In this document: piece by piece, positions 662 through 15,125 of the stretch | Position numbering within the stretch: the stretch's first letter is position 1 | Layout: every line of letters begins with the position of its first letter | Assembly: GCF_024436035.1 (NCBI RefSeq) | Contig: NZ_JANFNG010000045.1 | Span: forward strand, 1-41,480 | Length of the DNA: 41,480 nt | Reading direction: 5' to 3' | From: Streptomyces humicola | GTDB lineage: Bacteria > Actinomycetota > Actinomycetes > Streptomycetales > Streptomycetaceae | The notes under the pieces: generated by a model | The model's database searches: none | What the model saw: only the letters and a program-made list of their open reading frames with translations | What the model was told of the DNA's origin: nothing | Translations under genes and position numbers: made by a program

Positions 662-1768
662 TTACTTTTCCTGCTGCTTGCGCCAGCGGATCCCAGCCTC
701 CAGGAAGCCGTCGATCTCCCCGTCGAGCACCGCCTGAGGGTTACCCACCTCATGCTCCGTCCGCAGGTCCTTGACCATTTGGTACGGGTGCAGGACGTAC
801 GAACGCATCTGGTTGCCCCAGGAGTTGCCGCCGTCGCCCTTGAGCGCGTCCATTTTCGCCTGCTCCTCCTGACGGCGCCGCTCCAGCAGCTTGGCCTGCA
901 GGACGTTCATCGCGGAGGCGCGGTTCTGGATCTGCGAGCGCTCGTTCTGGCAGGAGACCACGATGCCGGTCGGCAGGTGAGTGATCCGCACCGCCGAGTC
1001 GGTCGTGTTGACGCCCTGGCCGCCAGGCCCCGAGGAACGGTAGACGTCGACGCGCAGCTCGGATTCGTCGATCTCGACGTGGTCGCTCTGCTCGACCACG
1101 GGCAGCACCTCGACGCCCGCGAAGGAGGTCTGGCGGCGGCCCTGGTTGTCGAAGGGCGAGATGCGCACGAGGCGGTGCGTGCCCTGTTCGACCGAGAGCG
1201 TCCCGTAGGCGTACGGGCTCTTGACAGCGAAGGTCGTCGACTTGATGCCGGCCTCTTCCGCGTACGAGGTCTCCAGGACCTCCGTCGGGTAGCCGTGCCG
1301 CTCCGCCCAGCGCAGGTACATGCGCTGCAGCTGCTCGGCGAAGTCGGCGGCATCGACACCGCCCGCCTCGGCGCGGATGTTCACCAGCGCCTCCCGGGCG
1401 TCGTACTCACCCGACAGCAGCGTCCGCACCTCCATCTCGTCGACGGCCTTGCGGACGGCGTCCAGCTCCGCCTCTGCCTCGGCGCGGGTGTCGGCGTCGT
1501 TCTCGGCCTCGGCCAGCTCGAAGAGCACCCCGACGTCGTCGATGCGGCTGCGCAGCGCCTCGACCTTGCGCAGCTCCCCCTGGAGGTATGAGAGCCGGCT
1601 GGTGATCTTCTGCGCGCTCTCGGGGTCGTCCCACAGCGAGGGGGCGGCCGCCTGCTCCTCGAGTGAGGCGATGTCGGCCCTCATCCTGTCGAGGTCGAGG
1701 ACGGCCTCGATCGACTCCATGGTGGAGGAGAGGGACTTCAGCTCTTCGGGTACGTCGAGGATTGCCAC
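662..1768 (-). CDS. prfB: Peptide chain release factor 2
   Basis: Class I release factor RF2, which reads UGA and UAA in the ribosomal A site and triggers peptidyl-tRNA hydrolysis in the cytoplasm. The product has 368 residues, the normal family length. The stop-codon tripeptide SPF is at 204-206 and the catalytic GGQ loop ([10 protein letters not shown]) at 249-251. Many bacteria need a +1 programmed frameshift at an internal UGA near codon 26; here the whole gene is one continuous frame, as is usual in Streptomyces. The start is GTG (1766-1768). No Shine-Dalgarno precedes it, but TAGGCT ends six bases upstream, so translation may be leaderless. The gene lies 58 bp downstream of the pkaB stop on the same strand. 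Confidence 0.97.
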
Positions 1769-1826: not shown

Positions 1827-3995
1827 TCAGCCCACCGCCACGGCAAGGCCGCCCGTCCCCGTGCGCACCCACAGCTCGACATGCCCGTCGGCGGCCAGCA
1901 CTCCCGCCGCGGAGCCGCCCGCCGACGGCGCCTGCACCTGCGTCATCTCCCAGTCACCGTCCGCAAGGCCGGTCGCCTCCGCCAGCCCGCCCCCCTCCTC
2001 GGGAGCGAACACGTACGTCTGTCCGCCCGGCTCGCCCGAGGAACCCGCCTCGGGCCGCCCCGCCGCATCGAAGTGCCCGACGACCTGCGGCGGCTGCCAC
2101 GCACCGCCCGTGTAGGGCAACCGCACCACCGCACCGTCGGCCTTGCGGACGACGAATGCGTCGAGCGTGCCCGGCGCACGCGAGACGAGGCCGGGCGCGA
2201 CCGCAACGCGACCGGCCGCGGGCAGCGCGGCCCACACGTTCCAGCGGCCCCCGACGAACGACGCGGTGACCAGCTGACCTCCGGTGAGGCCGACGAGGTC
2301 GATGCGGCCGGGCGCGGAGGACGCGGCCGCCGGGGCCGCGTCGAAGTGCGTGCGCTCGTCGACCTGGTACCAAGCGCCCCAGCCGCTGCCCGCCGCGGAC
2401 ATCGTCCTGCGGTACAGCAGTCCGTCCGTACCGAGCGCGAAGAGGTCCAGCTGCCCCTGCTGCGCGGAGACCACCGCCGGGTCGTCGGTGACGTGTATCC
2501 CGGTGAGCCGCTGCCAGGCCCCGTACCGTCCGCTGCGCTCGTCGCGGGTGATGTACCACACGTTCTGGTCCGCGCCGCGCGCGAAGACGTACGTGGTGCC
2601 GGAGAGCGCGATCGCGCGCGGTCCGCCGGTGAGCGGAACACCCGGGCGCGGGGCGTCCTGGAAGGCGGACCAGCGCGGCAGCGCGACGGGCGTGCCGGTG
2701 CTGCCCTGCGGGGAGGCGTCGGCGCCGGGGCTGGTGGCGGTGGAGTCGCCGGGCTGGTGGTCCTCGCGGGTGTTGGCCTTGGCGTCGTCGCCGCCGGACG
2801 CGAGCGCCCAGCCTCCGATTCCCGCGGCCACCAGTGCGGCGGCCGCGGCGGCCGCGAGCTTGATGCGGCGCCTGCGGACCGAGTCGGAGACGGCACGGTG
2901 GCGGGCTCGGGCGCCGCCGCCCGCCATCGTCGGACGGTGGGTCCCTCCTTCGCGGCGTGGATAGCCTGCGAGTTCGTCCGCGGTGGGGAGCTTGATGCTG
3001 GTGTGGGTCTCGCGGCTGGAGTCCGGGGCCGAGGCGCGCACCAGCGGGACGGCGCCGCGCCGGGTACGAGGGGCGGACGGAGCGGGCTCGGCCGTCTCCT
3101 CCGCGTCGGTCTCCCCCGCGCCCGTGCGGCCGTCGCCGTCATGCGGTGCGGCCACCTCCAGCGGTGGCAGCCCGGCGAGCTCGGGCAGCCGGCGGCGCAG
3201 CCGTTCGGCGAGCTCGCCGGCGGTGAGCCGGGAGGCGGGGGCCTTGGCGAGGCATTGGGCGAGGATCTGCCAGAGCGCGTCGGGGATGCCGGGCACCGGG
3301 GTGACCGTCTCGGTCACGTGGCGGCGCAGCACGGCGCCGGGGTGGCCGCCGCCGAAGGGCGTGAAGCCGGTGAGGAGTTCGTACAGGACGGTCGCGAGGG
3401 CGTAGATGTCGACGCTCGCGCGGGGCGGCAGGCCCTCGATGATCTCGGGCGCAAGGTAGTCCGGGGTGCCGATGATGCGGGTCGCCCGGGTGCGGCGGGG
3501 TGAGTCGACGAGCCTGGCGATGCCGAAATCGGTGAGCATGGCCGGGGGCGCGCCGCCGGGTCCGGGCGGGGCGGCCGCGTCGAGCAGGACGTTCTCCGGT
3601 TTCACGTCGCGGTGGACGACGCCGGCGGCGTGCGCGGCGGCGAGCCCGTCGGCGACGTCGGCAGCGATGGAGACGGCGGCCTCGGGGGCGAGCCGGCGGT
3701 CGCGTTCGAGGCGCGAGCGCAGGTCGGAGCCGCGTACGAGGTCCATGACGAGGGCCAGGTCGGTGCCGTCGACGACGAGATCTCTTATTCCGACGATGTG
3801 CGGGTCGTCGAGCGAGAGCAACGCCGTGCGCTCCTGGACGAAGCGGCCGACCAGGTCCTGGTCCGAGGCGAGGTCTTCACGCAGCAGCTTGATGGCGACC
3901 GGACCCTCGGGTCCCTCGCCCAGCCATACCGTTCCGGCAGAACCCCGCCCGAGGATCTGGTGGGCGGTGTACCGGCTGCCGATCTTCCGTGCCAA
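1827..3995 (-). CDS. pkaB: Ser/Thr protein kinase with one TM and an extracellular beta-propeller-like domain (PkaB-like)
   Basis: Eukaryotic-type (Hanks) kinase of 722 residues. Visible landmarks are the glycine loop GRGSAG (16-21), ATP-binding K36, the HRDVKPEN catalytic loop with D130, DFG at 156-158, and GTPDYLAPE in the activation segment. A basic, Thr-rich juxtamembrane linker follows, then one membrane segment (about 375-400; IKL-A7-LVAAGIGGWAL). The outer domain of about 300 residues contains some six related ~45-residue units (for example AIALSGTTYVFARGADQ, and DLFALGTDGLLYRRT), reminiscent of PLL-type lectin propellers. It probably senses an external ligand. The start is TTG with GGAG five bases upstream; no in-frame ATG fits. 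It lies downstream of pkaA on the same strand and the pair resembles pkaA/pkaB of S. coelicolor. Confidence 0.88.
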   Translation of the reverse strand: MARKIGSRYTAHQILGRGSAGTVWLGEGPEGPVAIKLLREDLASDQDLVGRFVQERTALLSLDDPHIVGIRDLVVDGTDLALVMDLVRGSDLRSRLERDRRLAPEAAVSIAADVADGLAAAHAAGVVHRDVKPENVLLDAAAPPGPGGAPPAMLTDFGIARLVDSPRRTRATRIIGTPDYLAPEIIEGLPPRASVDIYALATVLYELLTGFTPFGGGHPGAVLRRHVTETVTPVPGIPDALWQILAQCLAKAPASRLTAGELAERLRRRLPELAGLPPLEVAAPHDGDGRTGAGETDAEETAEPAPSAPRTRRGAVPLVRASAPDSSRETHTSIKLPTADELAGYPRREGGTHRPTMAGGGARARHRAVSDSVRRRRIKLAAAAAAALVAAGIGGWALASGGDDAKANTREDHQPGDSTATSPGADASPQGSTGTPVALPRWSAFQDAPRPGVPLTGGPRAIALSGTTYVFARGADQNVWYITRDERSGRYGAWQRLTGIHVTDDPAVVSAQQGQLDLFALGTDGLLYRRTMSAAGSGWGAWYQVDERTHFDAAPAAASSAPGRIDLVGLTGGQLVTASFVGGRWNVWAALPAAGRVAVAPGLVSRAPGTLDAFVVRKADGAVVRLPYTGGAWQPPQVVGHFDAAGRPEAGSSGEPGGQTYVFAPEEGGGLAEATGLADGDWEMTQVQAPSAGGSAAGVLAADGHVELWVRTGTGGLAVAVG

Positions 3996-4143
3996 GGCTG
4001 CTCCGACTCATCCGAATCAACTGCGCCCTCAAGGGGCACAGTCTCACGCCATCCGACGGTCTGTTGGCGACAAAGCTACGCGGATGAGGGGCCATTGGGG
4101 GAACCAGTCGGGGGTGAGTGCGGCTTCTGCGGGAGAAATCACC

Positions 4144-4169
4144 CTCTGGAAGTCGACAAATCTCCAGAG
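4144..4169 (-). terminator. Weak hairpin downstream of pkaA
   Basis: CTCTGGA (4144-4150) and TCCAGAG (4163-4169) form a 7-bp stem with a 12-base loop, 35 bp past the pkaA stop in the 208-bp pkaA-pkaB gap. There is no T-tract. It may attenuate read-through rather than fully terminate. Confidence 0.35.
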
Positions 4170-4203
4170 TCGGCTGACGAGTTGAGCGCAGCGCGAGGGG
4201 GCG

Positions 4204-5877
4204 TCAGCCGAGACCGCCGCTCTTCGGGATGTGCATGCTCCTGGCCGCACTGCCGAGCGTGGTGACCCAGTGGTAGGCCGACTTGATCCAGCTCGACGTG
4301 GCCTCGTACCAGTTCTCGCCCTTCGCGATCCAGTGCGGTACAGGCGTGAAGTTCCACACGAGGACAAAAATCACCACGAGGATGAAGATCATGAACAGGC
4401 AGCCCTTGAGACATCCCAGTCCCGGAATCCGCATCGGGGTGCGCTGCCTGGGCTCGCGACGCGGTGCGGGCTCTCGCTCCGGGCGGCGCTGCGGCTCGTA
4501 CCGCTCGGGCCGGGGCTCGTAGCGCTGGCGCTGCTGCGGCTGCGGCTGCCCGTACGGCTGCTGGGCGGGCGCGGGGGCGGGTTGCCGGCGCGGGCGGTGG
4601 CGCAGCGGGTCCTGGCTGGGGTCGAGGTAGCCGATCTCGGTCTGCTGGTTGCGGTTGCGCGCCGCACTGAGCTGCGACTCCCAGGGGTGCGGGCCCTGCG
4701 GCGCCTGCGGCCCCTGCTGTCCCTGCGGCCCTGTCGACGGCATCACGCGGGTGCCGTCCGCTGCCGAGCCGGGCAGCACGCTGGTGGCGGCATTGGGGTC
4801 GTATGCGTGGCTGCCGCCCTGCATCACCTGTGTCGGGTCGCCGCCGCCCATGGCCGCCGCCGCTGCGGCACCCGCAGCGGCTCCCGCCACAGCCCCCGCC
4901 GCCGCGGCCGCGCCCGCGCCGGTGCCGGGCACGCGGGCCGGGGCGGGATCGGGCGCGAGCAGGGTGCCCACGCCGAGCGCGGCCTCGGCGGCCTGCGGCG
5001 TGGCGTGGGCACCGATGCCGTGGCCGACGACGCGCAGCGCACAGGCGAGATTCTCGGCACTGGGGCGCTCGTCGGGGTTCTTGCGCAGACAGCGTTCGAT
5101 GACCGTCCACAGCGGCTCGGGCACGGTGGAGGGGCGGCGCGGATCCTGGCTGAGGTGCTGGTGGAGCACTTCGAGCGCGCTCTCGCCGCGGAACGGCGGA
5201 TGGCCGGTGACCAGCTCGTACATGAGGATGCCGGCGCCGTAGACGTCGACGGCCGAGGTCTGCTCCCGGCCCTCGGCGGACTCCGGCGCGACGTACGCGG
5301 GCGTGCCGACGAATTCATGCGTGCGTGTGACACCCGGGGAGTCCGCCAGACGGGCGATGCCGAAGTCGGTCAGCATCGGATACATCTGCGAGCCGTCCTC
5401 GCTGCTGGCGAGGAGGACGTTGGCGGGCTTGAGGTCGCGGTGGACGATGCCGTCGGCGTGGCTCGCCGCGAGTGCGTCGGCGATGCCGGCGGTGAGCAGG
5501 GCGGCGGCCATCGGCGTGAACGGGCCGTTCTCACGGACGTAGCAGTGGAGATCGGGGCCGTTGACCAGGTCCATCACGAGAGCGAGGAGCTCGCCCTCCA
5601 CCACCAGGTCGCGGGTGCGGACGATGTTGGGGTGGGTGAGGCGGAGCAGCACCGAGCGCTCCCGCAGGAAGCGCATCACGATGTCGGGATCGCTTGCGAG
5701 CTCCTCCTTGAGCACCTTGATCGCCACGACCTCGCCGGGGTGCGAGGGCGCGCCCTCGGCACCGTCGACGCCCTCGGGCAGGGCGGCGTCCTCGCGCACC
5801 CGGGCACGCCAGACGGTGCCCGTCGCCCCGCGCCCGAGCGGCTCCTCGAGCAGGTATTTGCTGCCTACCGGCCGCAC
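4204..5877 (-). CDS. pkaA: Ser/Thr protein kinase with a C-terminal TM (PkaA-like)
   Basis: Hanks-type kinase of 557 residues. It has the glycine loop GRGATG (15-20), ATP lysine K54, HRDLKPAN with D148, DFGIARLADS and GTPAYVAPE. After the kinase fold comes an Ala/Gly-rich then Pro/Gln/Arg-rich linker, a single membrane span near the C-terminus (CLFMIFILVVIFVLVW) and about 50 external residues. The chosen start is GTG at 5875-5877 (VRPVGSKYLLEE), with GGGAG eight bases upstream. The frame continues 25 codons further to 5952, but those residues are low-complexity and have no ribosome binding site. Its kinase domain closely resembles that of pkaB (for example RTRDLVVEG versus GIRDLVVDG), so the two probably arose by duplication. 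The substrate is unknown; the divergent FHA protein is an obvious candidate partner. Confidence 0.9.
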   Translation of the reverse strand: MRPVGSKYLLEEPLGRGATGTVWRARVREDAALPEGVDGAEGAPSHPGEVVAIKVLKEELASDPDIVMRFLRERSVLLRLTHPNIVRTRDLVVEGELLALVMDLVNGPDLHCYVRENGPFTPMAAALLTAGIADALAASHADGIVHRDLKPANVLLASSEDGSQMYPMLTDFGIARLADSPGVTRTHEFVGTPAYVAPESAEGREQTSAVDVYGAGILMYELVTGHPPFRGESALEVLHQHLSQDPRRPSTVPEPLWTVIERCLRKNPDERPSAENLACALRVVGHGIGAHATPQAAEAALGVGTLLAPDPAPARVPGTGAGAAAAAGAVAGAAAGAAAAAAMGGGDPTQVMQGGSHAYDPNAATSVLPGSAADGTRVMPSTGPQGQQGPQAPQGPHPWESQLSAARNRNQQTEIGYLDPSQDPLRHRPRRQPAPAPAQQPYGQPQPQQRQRYEPRPERYEPQRRPEREPAPRREPRQRTPMRIPGLGCLKGCLFMIFILVVIFVLVWNFTPVPHWIAKGENWYEATSSWIKSAYHWVTTLGSAARSMHIPKSGGLG

Positions 5878-6293
5878 GGCATGCGCTCCCAGGTCGTGAT
5901 CGTCACGGTCAACATCATGGACGGGGGCCCTCACGGGCCTCCTCCGCCCCACTGTAGTGCCGCGGCCGGAAAGCGTCCGGGCCAGCGCCCGGGCGCCTCG
6001 CCACGCGTGACGTGGGGCTTGAGGGAAGGACGCGGGGGAGGCCCTCTTGGTTCACCGGCCTGTCCGGCGGCCACGGAGGGCCCGGGCGGCGCGTCCCGCC
6101 GGGGACGGTTGCCGCAATTCGTCCGGTTCCCGACCATCGGTGACCGGTCGATGATCGAACAAGATCGTTGGCGGGGACGCCGGAGGCGCGTTGTCAGTGA
6201 CGAGTGGGAGGATGCCTCAGGCACGAAGCAGATCCGGCAGATCCGGCAGGAACGCCAGTGACGGTAGTGACGGTAGAAGGGACGCGGACGACG
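5878..6293. other. Divergent promoter region, pkaA / FHA-FtsK gene
   Basis: A 416-bp non-coding stretch between two divergent genes. It carries a RecA-NDp-like promoter on the plus strand (6191-6213). Two adjacent 9-bp tandem duplications follow: GATCCGGCA twice (6231-6248) and GTGACGGTA twice (6258-6275). Both are in frame with the downstream gene, so the N-terminus might be longer than annotated. I see no clear pkaA promoter. Confidence 0.5.
6191..6213 (+). promoter_or_regulatory. RecA-NDp/PafBC-like promoter (weak -10)
   Basis: TTGTCAGTG (6191-6199), 8 bases, then GAGGAT (6208-6213). The upstream half matches all nine bases of the published actinobacterial DNA-damage motif TTGTCRGTG-N8-TANNNT. 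The -10 has G for the first T. Transcription would start near 6220, leaving a leader of 40-75 bases before the FHA-FtsK start. Confidence 0.45.
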
Positions 6294-9200
6294 ATGCAGA
6301 TCCGGCTGACCGTCCTCGGGCCACGCAGCGGCCGCGCCTGCGACGTGCTCGTCACCGCTCCGGCGGGGACGGCCCTCGGCGCGGTGGCGGGCGCGCTTGC
6401 GGCGAGCGCCGGCTCCGGGCAGCCCGTGCGGTCGTCCGGCTCCGCCGTGCCGCTCTACGCAGGGGCCCAGCGGCTCGATCCCGGCACCGCGGTGCTCGGA
6501 GTGCCCCCGCTCGTCGACGGCGCCGTGCTCTCGCTGCACGCCCCCGCCGACCACGGCCACCACGACGAGCACCCCCACGACTCGGGCGCCCACGCGGAGC
6601 TGCACGTCATCGGCGGCCCCGACGCCGGCGGGGTCCATCTGCTCCACGGCGGTCAGGTGCGGATCGGGCGGTCGGCCGCGGCCGACGTCCCCCTCGACGA
6701 CCCGGACGTGTCACGGCTGCACTGCGCCGTGACCCTGGACCCGCAGACCGGCCATGTCTCGGTCAGCGACCTGGGGTCGACGAACGGCACGAGCGTCGAC
6801 GGTCATCCGGTCGGGGAGCGACCGGTGCCGCTGCCGCCGGGGGCTCTGCTGCGCATGGGGGAGTCCACACTCCGCCTGGAGCCCGGCCCGGCCGCAGGCC
6901 AGGCGGCGGAGACCGACGCCGTGCCCGCGCCCTCGGCGAGTCTGCCGGTGGCCCCGGACGCCGAGGGCCATCTGTGCGTCGCCCTCCTGCGTACCGCCCG
7001 CACCGCATTCACGCCGGGCGCCGGAGGTCCGGGCGCCTCGGGGGCGCATGCGGCCGAGCGCGTGCCGAGCCCGAGGAGGCCCGATTCCGCCGAGGACACG
7101 GGCCGGCCCGGCGCCTTCGCACCGCCGCCCGCCACGCCCGGCGTGCCCGCCGCGGCGACGACGAGCCACCTCGGCGGTGCCACCGGGCTCAGCAGCTCCG
7201 CGTATCCCAGCGCGCCCACGTCCCATGGGACCGGCACCGGCGGCCGCCCGGGGGCCGTGCACGACGCGCAGGGAGCGGAGGAAGCGGAGGAAGCAGAGGA
7301 AGCAGAGGAAGGCGGCGAGGGCGGCAGCCGGGTCGCCACGCCGCACCGGCTCGGGGCCGTCGACCGCAATGCGACGACCTTCGCCTCGCGAGGCGGAGTG
7401 CTCGGCGCCCCCGGCACCCCCGGCACACCCCCCGCAGGACGCGGCGGGGGGCTGTCAGGGGCCATAGGAGCCTGGGCACGGCGCATCGCCGCCGGCGCCG
7501 GGCGGGGCTCCGGCCGCGCCGGATCCGGAGCCTTTGAGGCGGCACGGCTCGCCGCCCACGCGGCCGCGCTGCGCGGCCGCGCACCCGATCCGGCAACCGT
7601 CCTGGTCACCGCGCTCGGGCCGGGCCCGCGTCTGTGGGAGCGGGGCGCCGACCAGGCCGATGCGCTGACCGTGCGGCTCGGCACCACCGATCGGCGGGTC
7701 GACGGGGGCCTGCTGCCGTCCGTGCCCGTCACCGCCGACCTGCGGCGCACCGGCTCGCTCGGGCTTGCCGGGCCCCGGCCACGGCTGGCCGGGCTGGCGC
7801 GTGCCGTCGTCGCCCAGTTGTGCGCGCTGCACTCCCCCTCGGTGCTCGAACTCGTCCTGATCAGCGCGGACCGCGCACGCCCCCTCGACGAGCGCGCCGA
7901 TGAGTGGGCCTGGCTCAACTGGCTGCCGCACGTGCGCCCCGCGCACGGCCAGGACTGCCGACTGCTGCTCGCGTTCGACCGCGAGCAGGCGGAGGCGCGT
8001 ACCGCAGAGTTGACGCGGCGTCTGGACGACGGGCCGCTCGGGCCGGGGTGGGCGACGGCCGCCCCGGAGGCGGTCGCCGCCTCGGCCGCCCGCCGCACGG
8101 GGCCGTTCACCGTCGTGGTGGTGGACGGCGACCCTGGGTCCATGGCACTGCGTGAGACCGTGGCGCGCCTGGCGCACGCGGGTCCTGCCGTCGGCGTCCA
8201 TCTCGTGTGCCTGGACGAGCAGTCCGAGCTGCTGACTGCTGAGTGCGGATCGGTGGCGCGGCTCGGCGGTGACGTGGCGACGACGCTGAGCGTGACCCCT
8301 TCGCCATGGCCCGACGACGGCTCCGCCGGCTCGCTGATCACCGTCGACGCGGTGTCGCCGGCGTGGGCCGAGCGGTTCGCCCGTGCACTGGCACCGCTGC
8401 GCGAGGCGGACGGTGCGGGGCGACGGAAGCGCAGCGCGCTGCCCCCGACCGCCCGCCTGCTCGATGAGTTGGACCTCGCGCTCGCCACCCCCGCGAAGAT
8501 CTCGGCGCGTTGGACGGCCGGCCCTGCCGGCTCGGGGGGCACCGCCGGTCCCGCCGCCGCACGGGCCGTGCTCGGAGCGGGCCCGGAGGGTCCGGTGACG
8601 GCCGATCTCGTCACCGAGGGCCCGCATCTGCTGGTCGGCGGTGCGGCCGGCTCGGGAAAGACGGAGCTGCTTCGCTCGGTCACCGCGGCGCTCGCTGCCG
8701 CCGCGCGGCCGGACCGGCTGTCGCTCGTCCTGATCGACGGCGCCCCGGAGCGCGGCGAGGGGCTGCGGGTCTGCACGGATCTGCCGCATGTCTCGACGTA
8801 TCTGGCGGCCTCCGACCCGGCACGGATGCGGGAGTTCGCGCAGGCACTCTCGGCCGAGCTGAAGCGCCGTGAGGAGATGCTGGACGAGAGCTCCTTCGAC
8901 TCGTTCGACGCGCTCGACGCCTGGCGTGCCGAGCGGCGTCTGGTCGTCGTCGTGGACGATCTCGACGCGCTGACGGCACCCGCGCTCGGCAGTCCGGGGC
9001 GGCCCGCGGCCGGTTCGGTCGTACGGGCGGTGGAGGGCGTGGCGCGCGCCGGCGCCCGGCTCGGGGTGCATCTGGTGGCGTCGACCGGCCGTCCGGAGCG
9101 CACGGCGGGCACGGAGGCGGACGAGCGGTCGCGGCTGCGGATCGCGCTGCGGACGGAGGATCCGGAGTCGGCGGCGCTGCTCGTGCACGTCGAGGATCCT

Positions 9201-9503
9201 GCGGGGCTCGACGAGTCCCTGCCGGGCCGGGGCTATCTGCGGCGACCCGACGGCGCGGTGACGCCGTTCCAGGCCGGACGGGTCAGCGGCCGCATCCCGC
9301 GGACGGCGACGCTGCGCCCGACCGTGGTGCCGCTGGAGTGGGAGCGGATGGGCGACCCGCCGGCCCGTCGCCCGCTGCGCGAACTCGGTAACGGGCCGAC
9401 GGACCTGGCGCTGCTGGCGAGTGCCCTGCAGCGGGCGGCCGAGTCGGTCTCCGCCGAGCCCGCGCTGCCACTGCCGGAACGCTCAGCCCTTGACGGCTCC
9501 TGA
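6294..9503 (+). CDS. FHA-domain FtsK/SpoIIIE (EccC/EssC-like) ATPase
   Basis: Protein of 1,069 residues. Residues 1-85 look like a small ubiquitin-like/YukD-type fold. Residues 100-197 are an FHA domain with the phosphothreonine-binding landmarks GRS (125-127), SRLH (140-143) and STNGT (162-166). A long Pro/Ala linker with four AEE triplets follows. A degenerate ATPase-like segment (GPRPRLAGLARAVVAQLC) precedes a complete FtsK/SpoIIIE motor domain: Walker A GGAAGSGKT (782-790, K789) and Walker B VVVVDD (D888-D889). This resembles EccC/EssC secretion ATPases with FHA modules, but I see no membrane segments. ATG 6294 opens the recognisable fold; GTG 6258, with AGGAA upstream, is an alternative start. 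It is divergent from the two kinases, suggesting phospho-dependent binding to them or their targets. Its 3' end overlaps the convergent permease gene by 21 bp. Confidence 0.85.
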   Translation: MQIRLTVLGPRSGRACDVLVTAPAGTALGAVAGALAASAGSGQPVRSSGSAVPLYAGAQRLDPGTAVLGVPPLVDGAVLSLHAPADHGHHDEHPHDSGAHAELHVIGGPDAGGVHLLHGGQVRIGRSAAADVPLDDPDVSRLHCAVTLDPQTGHVSVSDLGSTNGTSVDGHPVGERPVPLPPGALLRMGESTLRLEPGPAAGQAAETDAVPAPSASLPVAPDAEGHLCVALLRTARTAFTPGAGGPGASGAHAAERVPSPRRPDSAEDTGRPGAFAPPPATPGVPAAATTSHLGGATGLSSSAYPSAPTSHGTGTGGRPGAVHDAQGAEEAEEAEEAEEGGEGGSRVATPHRLGAVDRNATTFASRGGVLGAPGTPGTPPAGRGGGLSGAIGAWARRIAAGAGRGSGRAGSGAFEAARLAAHAAALRGRAPDPATVLVTALGPGPRLWERGADQADALTVRLGTTDRRVDGGLLPSVPVTADLRRTGSLGLAGPRPRLAGLARAVVAQLCALHSPSVLELVLISADRARPLDERADEWAWLNWLPHVRPAHGQDCRLLLAFDREQAEARTAELTRRLDDGPLGPGWATAAPEAVAASAARRTGPFTVVVVDGDPGSMALRETVARLAHAGPAVGVHLVCLDEQSELLTAECGSVARLGGDVATTLSVTPSPWPDDGSAGSLITVDAVSPAWAERFARALAPLREADGAGRRKRSALPPTARLLDELDLALATPAKISARWTAGPAGSGGTAGPAAARAVLGAGPEGPVTADLVTEGPHLLVGGAAGSGKTELLRSVTAALAAAARPDRLSLVLIDGAPERGEGLRVCTDLPHVSTYLAASDPARMREFAQALSAELKRREEMLDESSFDSFDALDAWRAERRLVVVVDDLDALTAPALGSPGRPAAGSVVRAVEGVARAGARLGVHLVASTGRPERTAGTEADERSRLRIALRTEDPESAALLVHVEDPAGLDESLPGRGYLRRPDGAVTPFQAGRVSGRIPRTATLRPTVVPLEWERMGDPPARRPLRELGNGPTDLALLASALQRAAESVSAEPALPLPERSALDGS
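7275..7310 (+). repeat. 9-bp in-frame repeats (AEE x4)
   Basis: Four tandem GCR-GAG-GAA units encode Ala-Glu-Glu four times in the interdomain linker of the FHA-FtsK protein. The tract is acidic, probably helical, and prone to slippage-driven length change. Confidence 0.9.
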
Positions 9504-12769: not shown

Positions 12770-12847
12770 CCCCCGTGCACGCTCGTTACGCAGCTGAGAT
12801 CAACATTCGACTGCAGCCCTAGGGGTGCGCGCCCTAGCCTTGATTCG

Positions 12848-12886
12848 TCGTCCGCACCGATCGTCCGCACCGATCGTCCGCGCCGA
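12848..12886. repeat. Three tandem 13-bp repeats upstream of the glycosyltransferase gene
   Basis: TCGTCCGCACCGA occurs twice (12848-12860, 12861-12873), followed by a one-mismatch copy TCGTCCGCGCCGA (12874-12886). The array ends 16 bp before the chosen GTG start of the GT2-TagF gene. A 13-bp period is not a codon multiple, which argues that this is leader rather than coding sequence. Confidence 0.9.
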
Positions 12887-12902
12887 GCGCCCAGGAAGTG
12901 CC

Positions 12903-15125
12903 GTGCCCCGGTTCAGCGTCATCGTCGTCGCCCGCAAGGTCCAGGCGTGCTTGCGTGAGGGCCTGGCGTCCGTGCTCTCCCAGTCATACCGGGACATCGA
13001 GCTCATCGCTGTGGACGACGGCTCGCCCGACGGCTGCGGCGAGATCATCGACGAGACCGCGGCCCACGACACACGCGTCCGCGCGATCCGGCTGCCGCAG
13101 AGCGTGGGCCCGGGACCCGCGCGCAACGCGGCGATAGAGCGCGCCAGCGGCGACTATCTCCTCGTCCTCGACGGCGACGACACCCTCGCCCCCGGATCGC
13201 TGCGTGCGATCGCCGACCGACTGAAGCGGACCGGCGATCCGGACGTCCTGGTCTTCGGGCGCGTCCGCATCCCGTGGGACGGCGAAGCGGTGCACGACGA
13301 GCCGGCCGGGCTCCTCGCCGACGGTGGCCCTCAGCCGTTCACCCTTGCCGGACGCCCGGAACTGCTGCGCCTGCCGGCCGGCGCCAAGGCCAAGGCCTAC
13401 CGCCGCGAGTTCGTCACCGGCACCGGGCTCGCCTTCCCGCCCGGCGCGTACGAAGAGATCCCCTGGTGCTTCCAGGCGCTGCTGACCGCCTCGTCCATCG
13501 CATTGCTCGACCGCGTCTGCCTGCACGAGAAGCAGCCCCGGGTCTCCCGCCTCAGCTCCTGCCTCCTCGGCCGGGACGGCCGTCCGCGATCCGACATCTT
13601 CGAGCAGTACGACCGCGTCTTCGCCTTTCTCGCCGAGCATCCGCAGCTGTCCTCGTGGCACCTGGTGCTCTTCCACCGCATGCTCGACGACATGACGGCG
13701 GCCTGGACCACCCCCGATCCGCTGCCCCGTACCGCCCGCCGCGCATACCTGGGGCAGTGCGCCGGCCACTACCGCCGCCACCGGCCGGCCTCCGGCGCCC
13801 GCAGCCGCGTACCGTTCATGCTGCGGTGGCGCGCCGGACGTGTGCGCCGCTGGGCCGGCGTCCACGGACCGGAGGCCTACAAGAGCCTGCGTGCCGGGCT
13901 GTTGCGGGTCTACTACCGCATCCAGCGCCTCCTCCCCCTCGACCGCAATCTCGCGGTCTTCGCCGCCTACTGGAACAAGGGCTACTCCTGCAATCCGGCC
14001 GCGATCGAGGCCGCCGTCCGCCGACTTGCCCCGCACATCCGCACGGCCTGGATCACCTCACCCGAGTACGCCCACACCCTTCCCGACGGCGTACGCCGGC
14101 TGCACCCCGGCTCCGCCGCCTTCTGGAAGGTCCTCGCCCGCGCCACCTACTTCGTCAACAACGTCAACTTCACCTATCTGCTGGCGAAGCGGCCCGGCCA
14201 GATCCATCTGCAGACCCACCACGGCACCCCGCTGAAGACGATGGGCCTCGATCTGCTGGACCACCCCGCCGCCGCGGCCGGCACGGACTTCGACCGGCTG
14301 CTGAACCACGTCGACCGCTGGGACTACTCCCTCACCTCCAACCGCCACTCCACGCTGTCCTGGGAGCGCGCCTACCCGGCCGCGTACACCACCCTCGAAT
14401 ACGGCTATCCGCGCAACGACGTCTTCCAGCGCGCGACCGCCGACGACGTCTCCCGCATACGTGCCACCCTCGGCATCCCCTCCTCCGGTATCGCGATCCT
14501 CTACGCCCCCACCCACCGCGACTACAGCAAGCGGCCCGTCGCCCAGCTCGACCTCGGACGCCTCGCGCGCGCCCTCGGCCCGGAGTTCACGCTGCTGACC
14601 CGCTCTCATTACTTCTACCAGGACCCACTGACAACCGACCGTGACGACGAGGGCAACGCCGACGAAGAGGCGGGCACCGCCCGCATCATCGACGTCTCGG
14701 CACACCCGTCGGTCGAGGAACTCTGCCTCGCCTCCGACGCCTTGCTCACCGACTACTCGTCCGTGATGTTCGACTACGCCAACCTCGACCGCCCGATCGT
14801 CATCCTGGCCACCGACTGGGAGACCTATCGCGCCGCGCGGGGCACCTACTTCGACATCACCAGCGAGCCGCCCGGCCCCGTCGCGCGCACCGAGGAAGAA
14901 CTCATCGGCGTCTTCACCTCGGACGCCTGGCACGGCCCGCGCTCGGCGCGGCTGCGCGCCGCGTTCCGCGCCCGTTTCTGCCCGTACGACGACGGGAACG
15001 CAGCGGAACGCGTCGTCCGCAGGGTCTTCCTGGCCCAGCAGGAGGACCGGCTGCCACCGGTCGTGCCCCTCGACGAGCGTCGCCCGGCCCCGCCGCCCTC
15101 CGCCGGCTCCTCAGCGCCCGAGTAG
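12903..15125 (+). CDS. Two-domain glycosyltransferase: GT2 plus CDP-glycerol glycerophosphotransferase (TagF)-like
   Basis: Protein of 740 residues. The N-terminal GT-A domain begins PRFSVIVVARK, with VDDGS at 37-41 and the metal-binding DGDD at 90-93. From about residue 360 comes a TagB/TagF-like glycerophosphotransferase domain with HHGTPLK (439-445), TSNRHST, APTHRDYSK and TDYSSVMFDYA (616-626). Such proteins build teichoic-acid-like or glycosyl-polyol-phosphate surface polymers at the inner face of the membrane. GTG 12903 is preferred: AGGAAG lies four bases upstream and the fold starts at once; the frame reaches back 26 codons into the 13-bp repeats. The gene is convergent with the acyltransferase, overlapping it by 15 bp. 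The acceptor and donor substrates are unknown. Confidence 0.88.
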   Translation: MPRFSVIVVARKVQACLREGLASVLSQSYRDIELIAVDDGSPDGCGEIIDETAAHDTRVRAIRLPQSVGPGPARNAAIERASGDYLLVLDGDDTLAPGSLRAIADRLKRTGDPDVLVFGRVRIPWDGEAVHDEPAGLLADGGPQPFTLAGRPELLRLPAGAKAKAYRREFVTGTGLAFPPGAYEEIPWCFQALLTASSIALLDRVCLHEKQPRVSRLSSCLLGRDGRPRSDIFEQYDRVFAFLAEHPQLSSWHLVLFHRMLDDMTAAWTTPDPLPRTARRAYLGQCAGHYRRHRPASGARSRVPFMLRWRAGRVRRWAGVHGPEAYKSLRAGLLRVYYRIQRLLPLDRNLAVFAAYWNKGYSCNPAAIEAAVRRLAPHIRTAWITSPEYAHTLPDGVRRLHPGSAAFWKVLARATYFVNNVNFTYLLAKRPGQIHLQTHHGTPLKTMGLDLLDHPAAAAGTDFDRLLNHVDRWDYSLTSNRHSTLSWERAYPAAYTTLEYGYPRNDVFQRATADDVSRIRATLGIPSSGIAILYAPTHRDYSKRPVAQLDLGRLARALGPEFTLLTRSHYFYQDPLTTDRDDEGNADEEAGTARIIDVSAHPSVEELCLASDALLTDYSSVMFDYANLDRPIVILATDWETYRAARGTYFDITSEPPGPVARTEEELIGVFTSDAWHGPRSARLRAAFRARFCPYDDGNAAERVVRRVFLAQQEDRLPPVVPLDERRPAPPPSAGSSAPE

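What the first reader, a model, noticed from the sequence alone, without database searches (positions are those of the whole stretch)
1827..9503. Two membrane kinases divergently paired with an FHA-EccC/FtsK-like motor
Kinase writers (pkaB, pkaA) and an FHA reader fused to a complete FtsK/SpoIIIE ATPase lie side by side. The motor resembles type VII secretion ATPases (EccC/EssC), but there are no WXG100, EccB/D/E or mycosin genes here and I see no membrane segments in it. It could be a signal-controlled soluble motor acting on DNA or on a remote secretion machine. No function is established from the sequence.
Basis: partly seen in the sequence, partly recalled or inferred. Interest (0 to 1): 0.6.

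Follow-up and report, generated by a model that had tools for sequence, protein, structure and literature searches.

The report
Kinase-linked FHA protein with decayed motor
Next to two membrane signalling kinases, Streptomyces relatives keep a protein built from a secretion-machine motor that has lost its membrane anchor, most of its engine and key catalytic residues but kept its phosphate-reading head, so it probably works as a signalling adaptor and not as a motor.

Summary
The genes are real: prfB, pkaB, pkaA and, divergently, an FHA-FtsK gene (start ATG 6294). The trio is conserved in Streptomycetaceae: pkaA is adjacent in 51 of 51 testable rows. The FHA protein is not a complete motor but a cut-down EccC/EssC-type ATPase: N-terminal domain, FHA, linker without membrane helices, D0 (DUF) and one ATPase module (D1), ending at the D1-D2 boundary. 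D1 is catalytically eroded: Walker B DE has become DD (63 of 63) and the arginine-finger column is not Arg (27 of 27). In 55 of 61 readable rows the Walker A Lys is Arg, in four synonymous codons; the window keeps Lys. Yet D1 is under strong purifying selection (dN/dS 0.18). The FHA phosphothreonine residues are kept, whereas four of five EssC-like relatives lost them. Best reading: a phospho-responsive, perhaps nucleotide-binding adaptor of PkaA/PkaB derived from a secretion ATPase. A sigma-E-type promoter faces pkaA in 49 of 52 regions, but not convincingly in the window. Here PkaB has a PLL-lectin-like ectodomain. Biochemistry and type VII genes elsewhere in this genome were untestable.

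The parts
662..1768 (-). prfB (peptide chain release factor 2), flanking marker
   Evidence: Pfam PCRF and RF-1; on the pkaB side in 44 of 45 loci with 5.2 kb or more upstream; the exception L007 has the kinase-FHA block inverted
1827..3995 (-). pkaB: Ser/Thr kinase, one hydrophobic segment, extracellular domain (722 aa ORF)
   Evidence: Pfam Pkinase; VAIK/HRD/DFG intact
1830..2708 (-). PkaB ectodomain, PLL/PHL lectin-like beta-propeller
   Evidence: profile of 6 rows against PDB: PLL2 E 3.9e-46; AlphaFold2 mean pLDDT 77.4, pTM 0.81; Foldseek rows 1-22 all PLL/PHL lectins; present in 6 of 49 pkaB rows
2802..2858 (-). PkaB transmembrane segment (residues 380-398)
   Evidence: KD19 1.89; the S. 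coelicolor PkaB tail anchor is experimentally shown (PMC3087755, passages)
4204..5952 (-). pkaA: Ser/Thr kinase, Pro-rich linker, one C-terminal transmembrane segment (582 aa ORF; true start probably downstream of 5952)
   Evidence: Pfam Pkinase
4357..4413 (-). PkaA transmembrane segment (residues 514-532)
   Evidence: KD19 2.97
5953..6293 (.). divergent intergenic region
   Evidence: sequence; orthologous regions hold a strict sigma-E-type promoter towards pkaA in 49 of 52
6104..6131 (-). weak sigma-E-like match towards pkaA (GGGAAC-N18-CGTC, CC after it)
   Evidence: loose pattern only; fails the strict pattern, and sister locus L005 has none
6294..9503 (+). FHA-D0-D1 protein gene (1069 aa), EccC/EssC-derived
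   Evidence: ORF, conserved start, TIGR03924 EccCa 185.2 bits, below the 509.15-bit cut-off
6294..6557 (+). conserved N-terminal domain (residues 1-88), shared with EssC-like relatives; ubiquitin-like by recall only
   Evidence: alignments; no convincing solved relative (best E 0.2)
6657..6860 (+). FHA domain with GR, SRxH and NG phosphothreonine-site residues (motif recalled)
   Evidence: Pfam FHA E 6.3e-17; R126 in 52 of 52, H143 in 50 of 51, N164 in 50 of 53 readable rows
6894..7577 (+). low-conservation linker without a membrane segment
   Evidence: dN/dS 0.56-0.66; KD19 0.94
7581..8393 (+). D0 (DUF) Rossmann module
   Evidence: AlphaFold2; EccC5 DUF 8rin Z 19.7
8556..9293 (+). D1 ATPase module, the only one
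   Evidence: Pfam FtsK_SpoIIIE, one stretch; EssC/EccC ATPases Z 26.1-28.5
8640..8663 (+). Walker A GAAGSGKT (Lys789); Arg in 55 of 61 readable family rows
8943..8960 (+). Walker B VVVVDD (Asp in place of the catalytic Glu)
   Evidence: DD in 63 of 63 family rows, DE in 7 of 7 references
9249..9443 (+). highly conserved tail, homologous to the D1-D2 linker; the protein ends where D2 would begin
   Evidence: dN/dS 0.056 in Arg-type and 0.090 in Lys-type pairs; alignment to L002, L003, L004 and L056

Best explanation
The FHA-FtsK protein is a phospho-responsive adaptor made from an EssC/EccC-type secretion ATPase. PkaA and PkaB, membrane kinases, phosphorylate threonines on themselves or on targets; the FHA domain docks there; D0-D1 and the highly conserved tail act as a structural, perhaps nucleotide-binding, scaffold that binds a downstream envelope or signalling partner, without pumping DNA or protein. 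Shown here: conserved genetic linkage, intact kinase motifs, intact FHA pThr-site residues, absence of membrane helices and D2/D3, altered Walker B and finger positions, Walker A Arg in most orthologs, purifying selection on D1. Inferred: that the kinases are the writers, that hydrolysis is lost, that the protein scaffolds. The downstream partner is unknown.
For: pkaA adjacent and divergent in 51 of 51 rows with the N terminus and 1.5 kb upstream, pkaB next in 45 of 45; in L007 the pkaB-pkaA-FHA block is inverted as a unit between prfB and the ABC genes. Walker B DD 63 of 63 against DE 7 of 7 references; finger column non-Arg 27 of 27 against Arg 5 of 5 references; Walker A Arg 55 of 61, codons CGT 26, CGC 16, CGG 12, CGA 1, against Lys AAG 6; one change on the tree, references Lys 7 of 7. 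dN/dS in 40 sampled Arg-type pairs: D1 0.18, D0 0.19, FHA 0.24, linker 0.66, tail 0.06. FHA residues kept in the family, lost in L002, L003, L004 and L056, kept in L001. Binding without a catalytic acid has a precedent: EssC D2 of Geobacillus has Asn there and binds ATP with high affinity (PMC4925161, abstract and passages). Published link to envelope stress: sigma-E ChIP sites listed for sco2974 and sco2975 (PMC6767563, passages).
Against: The window protein itself keeps Walker A Lys. PMC9436818 (passages) writes the motifs as [A/G]xxxxG[K/R][S/T] and hhhhD[E/D], which these sequences satisfy, and S. aureus EssC D2 naturally has Arg (R1020) and needs its Walker residues for complex assembly. 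An Arg lies one residue before the finger column in 27 of 27 rows. L001 has an intact motor and an intact FHA site, so the two are not strictly exclusive. The window and L005 lack a clear sigma-E site. FHA binding to PkaA or PkaB is untested. Gene linkage is not proof of interaction.
Confidence: 0.6

Rival explanations
1. It is still a working ATPase: a soluble, oligomer-forming EccC-like switch or motor gated by kinase-dependent FHA docking, perhaps acting on a separate type VII machine.
For: Walker A Lys kept in the window and 5 relatives; P-loop neighbours largely conserved: G 61 of 61 at three positions, T 59 of 61 after the Lys/Arg; Asp is allowed at the second Walker B position in the motif of PMC9436818; fold close to EccC/EssC and FtsK motors.
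Against: No D2, D3 or membrane helices; Walker B Glu and finger Arg absent; Arg in 55 of 61; 11-17 residues missing in the second half of D1 in the Arg-type rows.
Confidence: 0.22
2. A DNA-handling FtsK-like translocase controlled by the kinases.
For: FtsK motor domains among the fold matches at Z 24.6-25.9, tied with some EccC modules; Pfam FtsK_SpoIIIE.
Against: Sequence, NCBIfam and the D0 module point to EccC; Pfam lists no DNA-binding domain; catalytic erosion.
Confidence: 0.05
3. A decaying remnant without function, carried along by its kinases.
For: Losses relative to EssC-like references: membrane helices, D2/D3, catalytic residues, and in Arg-type rows a D1 segment.
Against: dN/dS 0.06-0.29 in all conserved domains of both types; highly conserved tail; Arg kept through four codons.
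Confidence: 0.05
4. Membrane-associated assembly factor: D0-D1 oligomerises on the kinases as in the EssC complex, clustering PkaA and PkaB; phosphate reading by the FHA is secondary.
For: In T7SSb the YukB FHA region binds the YukC pseudokinase, apparently without phosphorylation (PMC9600267, passages); conserved tail.
Against: Unlike in EssC the pThr residues are retained here; no data on oligomers.
Confidence: 0.08

Closest known systems
EccC (type VIIa secretion ATPase, T. curvata 4nh0, EccC5)
   Same: D0/DUF plus D1 by sequence and predicted fold
   Different: no TM helices, no D2/D3, FHA present, Walker B DD, finger Arg absent; scores far below the EccCa family cut-off
EssC/YukB (type VIIb) and actinobacterial FHA-EccC genes in WXG100 loci (L002, L003)
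   Same: N-terminal domain, FHA position, D0, D1, D1-D2 linker
   Different: L002 and L003 keep TM, D2-D3, Lys, DE and finger Arg and have lost the pThr-site residues; here the reverse
EssB/YukC pseudokinase with the YukB FHA region (PMC9600267, passages)
   Same: kinase-fold domain, one TM, ectodomain, partner with FHA
   Different: there the kinase is dead and the motor alive; here kinase motifs are intact and the motor is eroded; no sequence kinship of PkaA/PkaB to EssB was tested
S. coelicolor PkaB SCO2973, PkaA SCO2974 and hypothetical SCO2975
   Same: same kinase names and numbering order; SCO2975 is the expected ortholog by position (inferred, its sequence was not seen)
   Different: PkaB of the fetched Arg-type loci lacks the lectin ectodomain (0 of 43)
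FhaB/GarA-type FHA adaptors of actinobacteria
   Same: FHA domain matches GarA structures and the FhaB model (FhaB below its cut-off)
   Different: small proteins without an ATPase-derived part

Membership tests
EccC/EssC secretion ATPase | D0/DUF and D1 modules | tested here: met
EccC/EssC secretion ATPase | two transmembrane helices before D0 | tested here: not met
   linker KD19 0.94; maximum 1.25 over 52 family rows
EccC/EssC secretion ATPase | D2 and D3 modules, in the gene or beside it | tested here: not met
   92 probe hits in family rows, 91 inside the FHA gene (D1) and 1 overlapping its cut copy in L057 (first look, output cut)
EccC/EssC secretion ATPase | score above the NCBIfam family cut-off | tested here: not met
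   185.2 bits against 509.15 (EccCa); 110.9 against 778.4 (EssC)
EccC/EssC secretion ATPase | WXG100, EccB/D/E or EssA/B partners | tested here: inconclusive
   none among the 14 window proteins scanned; other ORFs not scanned, genome not searchable
active P-loop ATPase of this class | Walker A Lys | tested here: met
   Lys789 in the window; Arg in 55 of 61 readable family rows
active P-loop ATPase of this class | Walker B catalytic Glu and Arg finger | tested here: not met
   DD 63 of 63; finger column non-Arg 27 of 27, Arg one residue earlier
FtsK DNA translocase | FtsK-type motor fold | tested here: met
   Z 24.6-25.9; a shared fold shows no function
FtsK DNA translocase | DNA translocation | not testable with these tools
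   needs protein
phosphothreonine-binding FHA domain | GR, SxxH, NG residues (motif recalled) | tested here: met
phosphothreonine-binding FHA domain | binding to a pThr peptide | not testable with these tools
   needs protein
Hanks-type membrane Ser/Thr kinase | VAIK, HRD, DFG, APE and one TM | tested here: met
   PkaA and PkaB
sigma-E regulon (pkaA promoter) | GCAACC, spacer, CGTC followed by T/C T/C (strict pattern) | tested here: not met
   window, L005 and L069 fail it; 49 of 52 regions meet it

The most novel reading that the evidence does not exclude
The locus is a mirror image of the type VIIb EssB-EssC core: there a dead kinase with TM and ectodomain holds a phospho-blind FHA of a live motor; here live kinases with TM and ectodomain address a phospho-competent FHA on a dead, TM-less motor. 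A secretion coupling module would thus have been turned into an envelope-stress signalling module, keeping the kinase-FHA contact and swapping which partner is catalytic.
Probability: 0.3. Interest if true: 0.75.

Novelty: new variant of a known kind. Interest (0 to 1): 0.55.

Why it matters
Pseudo-enzymes derived from secretion motors are, to my knowledge, little described. This one is kept beside two kinases across Streptomyces and Actinacidiphila and makes sharp predictions: an Arg-for-Lys P-loop, an FHA reader and a highly conserved tail, all easy to mutate. It offers a candidate partner for PkaA and PkaB. The listings of the literature searches and the passages read gave no paper on this protein; sco2975 appears as 'hypothetical protein' in one. 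Most listed papers were not opened.

Tried and rejected
Complete motor: rejected. DNA translocase: disfavoured, not excluded by fold. Promoter towards the FHA gene: the sigma-E-type pattern was found in 1 of 52 regions with the loose and 0 of 52 with the strict pattern; for the loose pattern shuffled regions gave 3.75 of 52 on average. The sco2975 site printed in PMC6767563 departs from the usual motif. Link to the ABC importer: SBP and permease relatives lie beside the block in most family loci, but not in L013, and in the window and L005 only a weak partial permease match is seen; the Nonomuraea EssC-like gene also lies near SBP and permease relatives (27-32% identity); suggestive, one case, common families, not pursued. 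N-terminal domain: no convincing solved relative; 'ubiquitin-like' is recalled. Distribution outside Streptomycetaceae, the Lys/Arg state in Kitasatospora or Streptacidiphilus, and type VII genes of the window's genome: not testable, as the genome search did not complete. Rows dropped before counts: L063 (broken by N) and L070-L073, L075-L077 (no match at the script's threshold); L001-L004, L056, L068, L074 used as references. L054 and L062 do not reach Walker A; L054, named Streptomyces, has the full-length D1 segment seen only in Lys-type rows, so it may be a further Lys-type. L001 has a second frame after D1, so its tail was not used. dN/dS pairs were a sample (40 Arg-type pairs filtered to 80-97% D0 identity; 4 Lys-type pairs). 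The tree is a quick one, without the Walker A columns only, with long reference branches. The PkaB alignment (A3) has 6 rows; 42 of 43 PkaB without the ectodomain have 408-439 aa, L040 reads 600. My first tally of pkaA adjacency (52 of 52) was conditioned on finding pkaA; it was redone without that condition. In one search the full-length pkaA query missed 5 of 47 loci; the kinase-domain query finds them.
Full report
What is there. The first 10 kb of the window hold prfB (662-1768, minus), pkaB (1827-3995, minus), pkaA (4204-5952, minus) and, divergently, an FHA-FtsK gene whose conserved start is ATG 6294. Both kinases keep the VAIK, HRD and DFG motifs and one hydrophobic segment behind the catalytic domain. 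For S. coelicolor PkaB the tail anchor is experimental (PMC3087755, passages read).

Conservation. With the plasmid loci, 7 proteins serve as references (L001-L004, L056, L068, L074); L063 is broken by N and L070-L073 and L075-L077 are not relatives at the script's threshold. 63 family rows remain including the window. Of 51 rows in which the FHA N terminus is found with 1.5 kb or more upstream, 51 have a pkaA-type kinase divergent within 1.3 kb (not conditioned on the kinase). Of 45 loci with 5.2 kb or more upstream, 45 have pkaB next and 44 prfB beyond. In the exception, Actinacidiphila oryziradicis L007, the pkaB-pkaA-FHA block is inverted as a unit between prfB and the ABC importer genes, which argues that the three genes belong together.

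Architecture. From the N terminus: a conserved domain shared with EssC-like proteins, an FHA domain, a variable linker, D0, D1 and a tail. Against solved structures the best match is T. curvata EccC, residues 475-1004 to D0-D1. NCBIfam EccCa is matched from profile position 179 to 672 of 673 with 185.2 bits, below the 509.15-bit cut-off. AlphaFold2 on residues 426-1069 (28 rows, mean pLDDT 78.7, pTM 0.54, so the placing of the two modules is unsure) gives two Rossmann modules; VIA-align finds EssC/EccC ATPases at Z 26.1-28.5 for the second, FtsK at up to 25.9 (tied with the lowest of these), and the EccC5 DUF at Z 19.7 for the first. There is no membrane segment in the linker: KD19 0.94 in the window and at most 1.25 in 52 rows, against 2.1-2.2 in four EssC-like references and 1.45 in the fifth. 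D2-D3 probes gave 92 hits in family rows: 91 inside the FHA gene (D1) and one overlapping its contig-cut copy in L057. The tail aligns with the D1-D2 linker of L002, L003, L004 and L056, and the protein stops where D2 would start.

Catalytic residues. References have Lys and DE in 7 of 7; the family has DD in 63 of 63. The column of the arginine finger (by offset from the Walker A Lys as for S. aureus EssC R734, PMC9436818, passages; the mapping is mine) is Arg in 5 of 5 references and E, V, M, H, A or D in 27 of 27 family rows examined; an Arg sits one residue earlier in all 27. Walker A Lys is kept in 6 rows (window, L005, Actinacidiphila L007-L009, and L066, named Streptomyces sp. HPF1205 but grouping with them) and is Arg in 55, with codons CGT 26, CGC 16, CGG 12 and CGA 1. 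On a tree of 63 rows built without the Walker A columns the state changes once (quick method, long reference branches). Arg-type rows also lack 11-17 residues in the second half of D1 and, in those read from the N terminus, have 50-515 residues before Walker B where Lys-type rows have 15-51. L054, a Streptomyces row whose Walker A is not read, has the full-length D1 segment, so the genus may not be uniform.

Selection. dN/dS (Nei-Gojobori, 40 sampled Arg-type pairs) is 0.18 for D1, 0.19 for D0, 0.24 for FHA, 0.29 for the N-terminal domain, 0.66 for the linker and 0.06 for the tail; 4 Lys-type pairs give 0.21, 0.26, 0.21, 0.25, 0.56 and 0.09. D1 is thus kept as a folded module though its catalytic residues are altered. 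The FHA site is the opposite case: Arg 52 of 52, His 50 of 51 and Asn 50 of 53 in readable family rows, while L002, L003, L004 and L056, which have Lys, DE and finger Arg, have lost them; L001 keeps both. EssC FHA domains are published as lacking the pThr residues (PMC4925161; PMC9600267; passages).

Regulation. PMC6767563 (passages) lists sigma-E ChIP sites for sco2974 (pkaA) and sco2975 and predicts the pkaA site to be conserved in at least 9 of 19 Streptomyces genomes. Here a strict form of that promoter faces pkaA in 49 of 52 intergenic regions, against 0 of 52 on the other strand and 0 of 1023 random same-length stretches. With a looser pattern it is 51 of 52, 1 of 52 on the other strand, and 3.75 of 52 in shuffles. 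The window, its sister L005 and L069 fail the strict pattern; the window has only a loose match at 6104-6131. Sigma-E control is therefore not claimed for the window.

PkaB ectodomain. In the window and L005, L007, L008, L009 and L066 (6 of 49 pkaB rows, all Lys-type) PkaB carries a PLL/PHL lectin-like propeller (E 3.9e-46; fold match; distribution). In the other 43 it is absent; 42 of those proteins have 408-439 aa. Sugar binding is not shown.

Reading. The protein is most simply a phospho-responsive adaptor built on an EssC/EccC scaffold and serving PkaA and PkaB. Shown: linkage, anatomy, residue states, selection. Inferred: writer-reader relation, lack of hydrolysis, scaffold role. Against it: the window keeps Lys; the motif definitions of PMC9436818 admit Arg and DD; S. 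aureus EssC D2 has a natural Walker A Arg and needs its Walker residues for assembly. That last case, and ATP binding by a D2 with Asn at the catalytic position (PMC4925161), also fit a nucleotide-dependent assembly role. The boldest reading is that the locus inverts the type VIIb EssB-EssC pair, live kinase and dead motor in place of dead kinase and live motor (for the published pair).

Limits. The genome search did not complete, so type VII genes elsewhere in this genome and the wider distribution are untested. The identity of SCO2975 with this family is inferred from gene order.

Noticed in passing
window 1830-2708: PkaB ectodomain resembles the Photorhabdus PLL/PHL lectin propellers: a kinase with a possible sugar sensor, seen only in the Lys-type rows of the family.
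   Followed up: partly
L007 1101-13386: The kinase-FHA block is inverted as a unit between prfB and the ABC importer genes.
   Followed up: yes
L001 224-11031: Nonomuraea EssC-like gene with a canonical FHA, near SBP and permease genes related to those beside the Streptomyces FHA gene; D2-D3 lie in a second frame from about 9.6 kb (frameshift or two genes).
   Followed up: partly
L002, L003: FHA-EccC genes beside WXG100 genes on a Streptomyces and a Curtobacterium plasmid, with intact motor residues and eroded FHA site.
   Followed up: partly
window 12825-15125: Glycosyltransferase fused to CDP-glycerol glycerophosphotransferase, a teichoic acid type enzyme.
   Followed up: no
L056 584-6682: EssC-like gene with TM beside CpaF-like ATPase, ParA-like and TadB-like reading frames (names by eye from the translation).
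   Followed up: no
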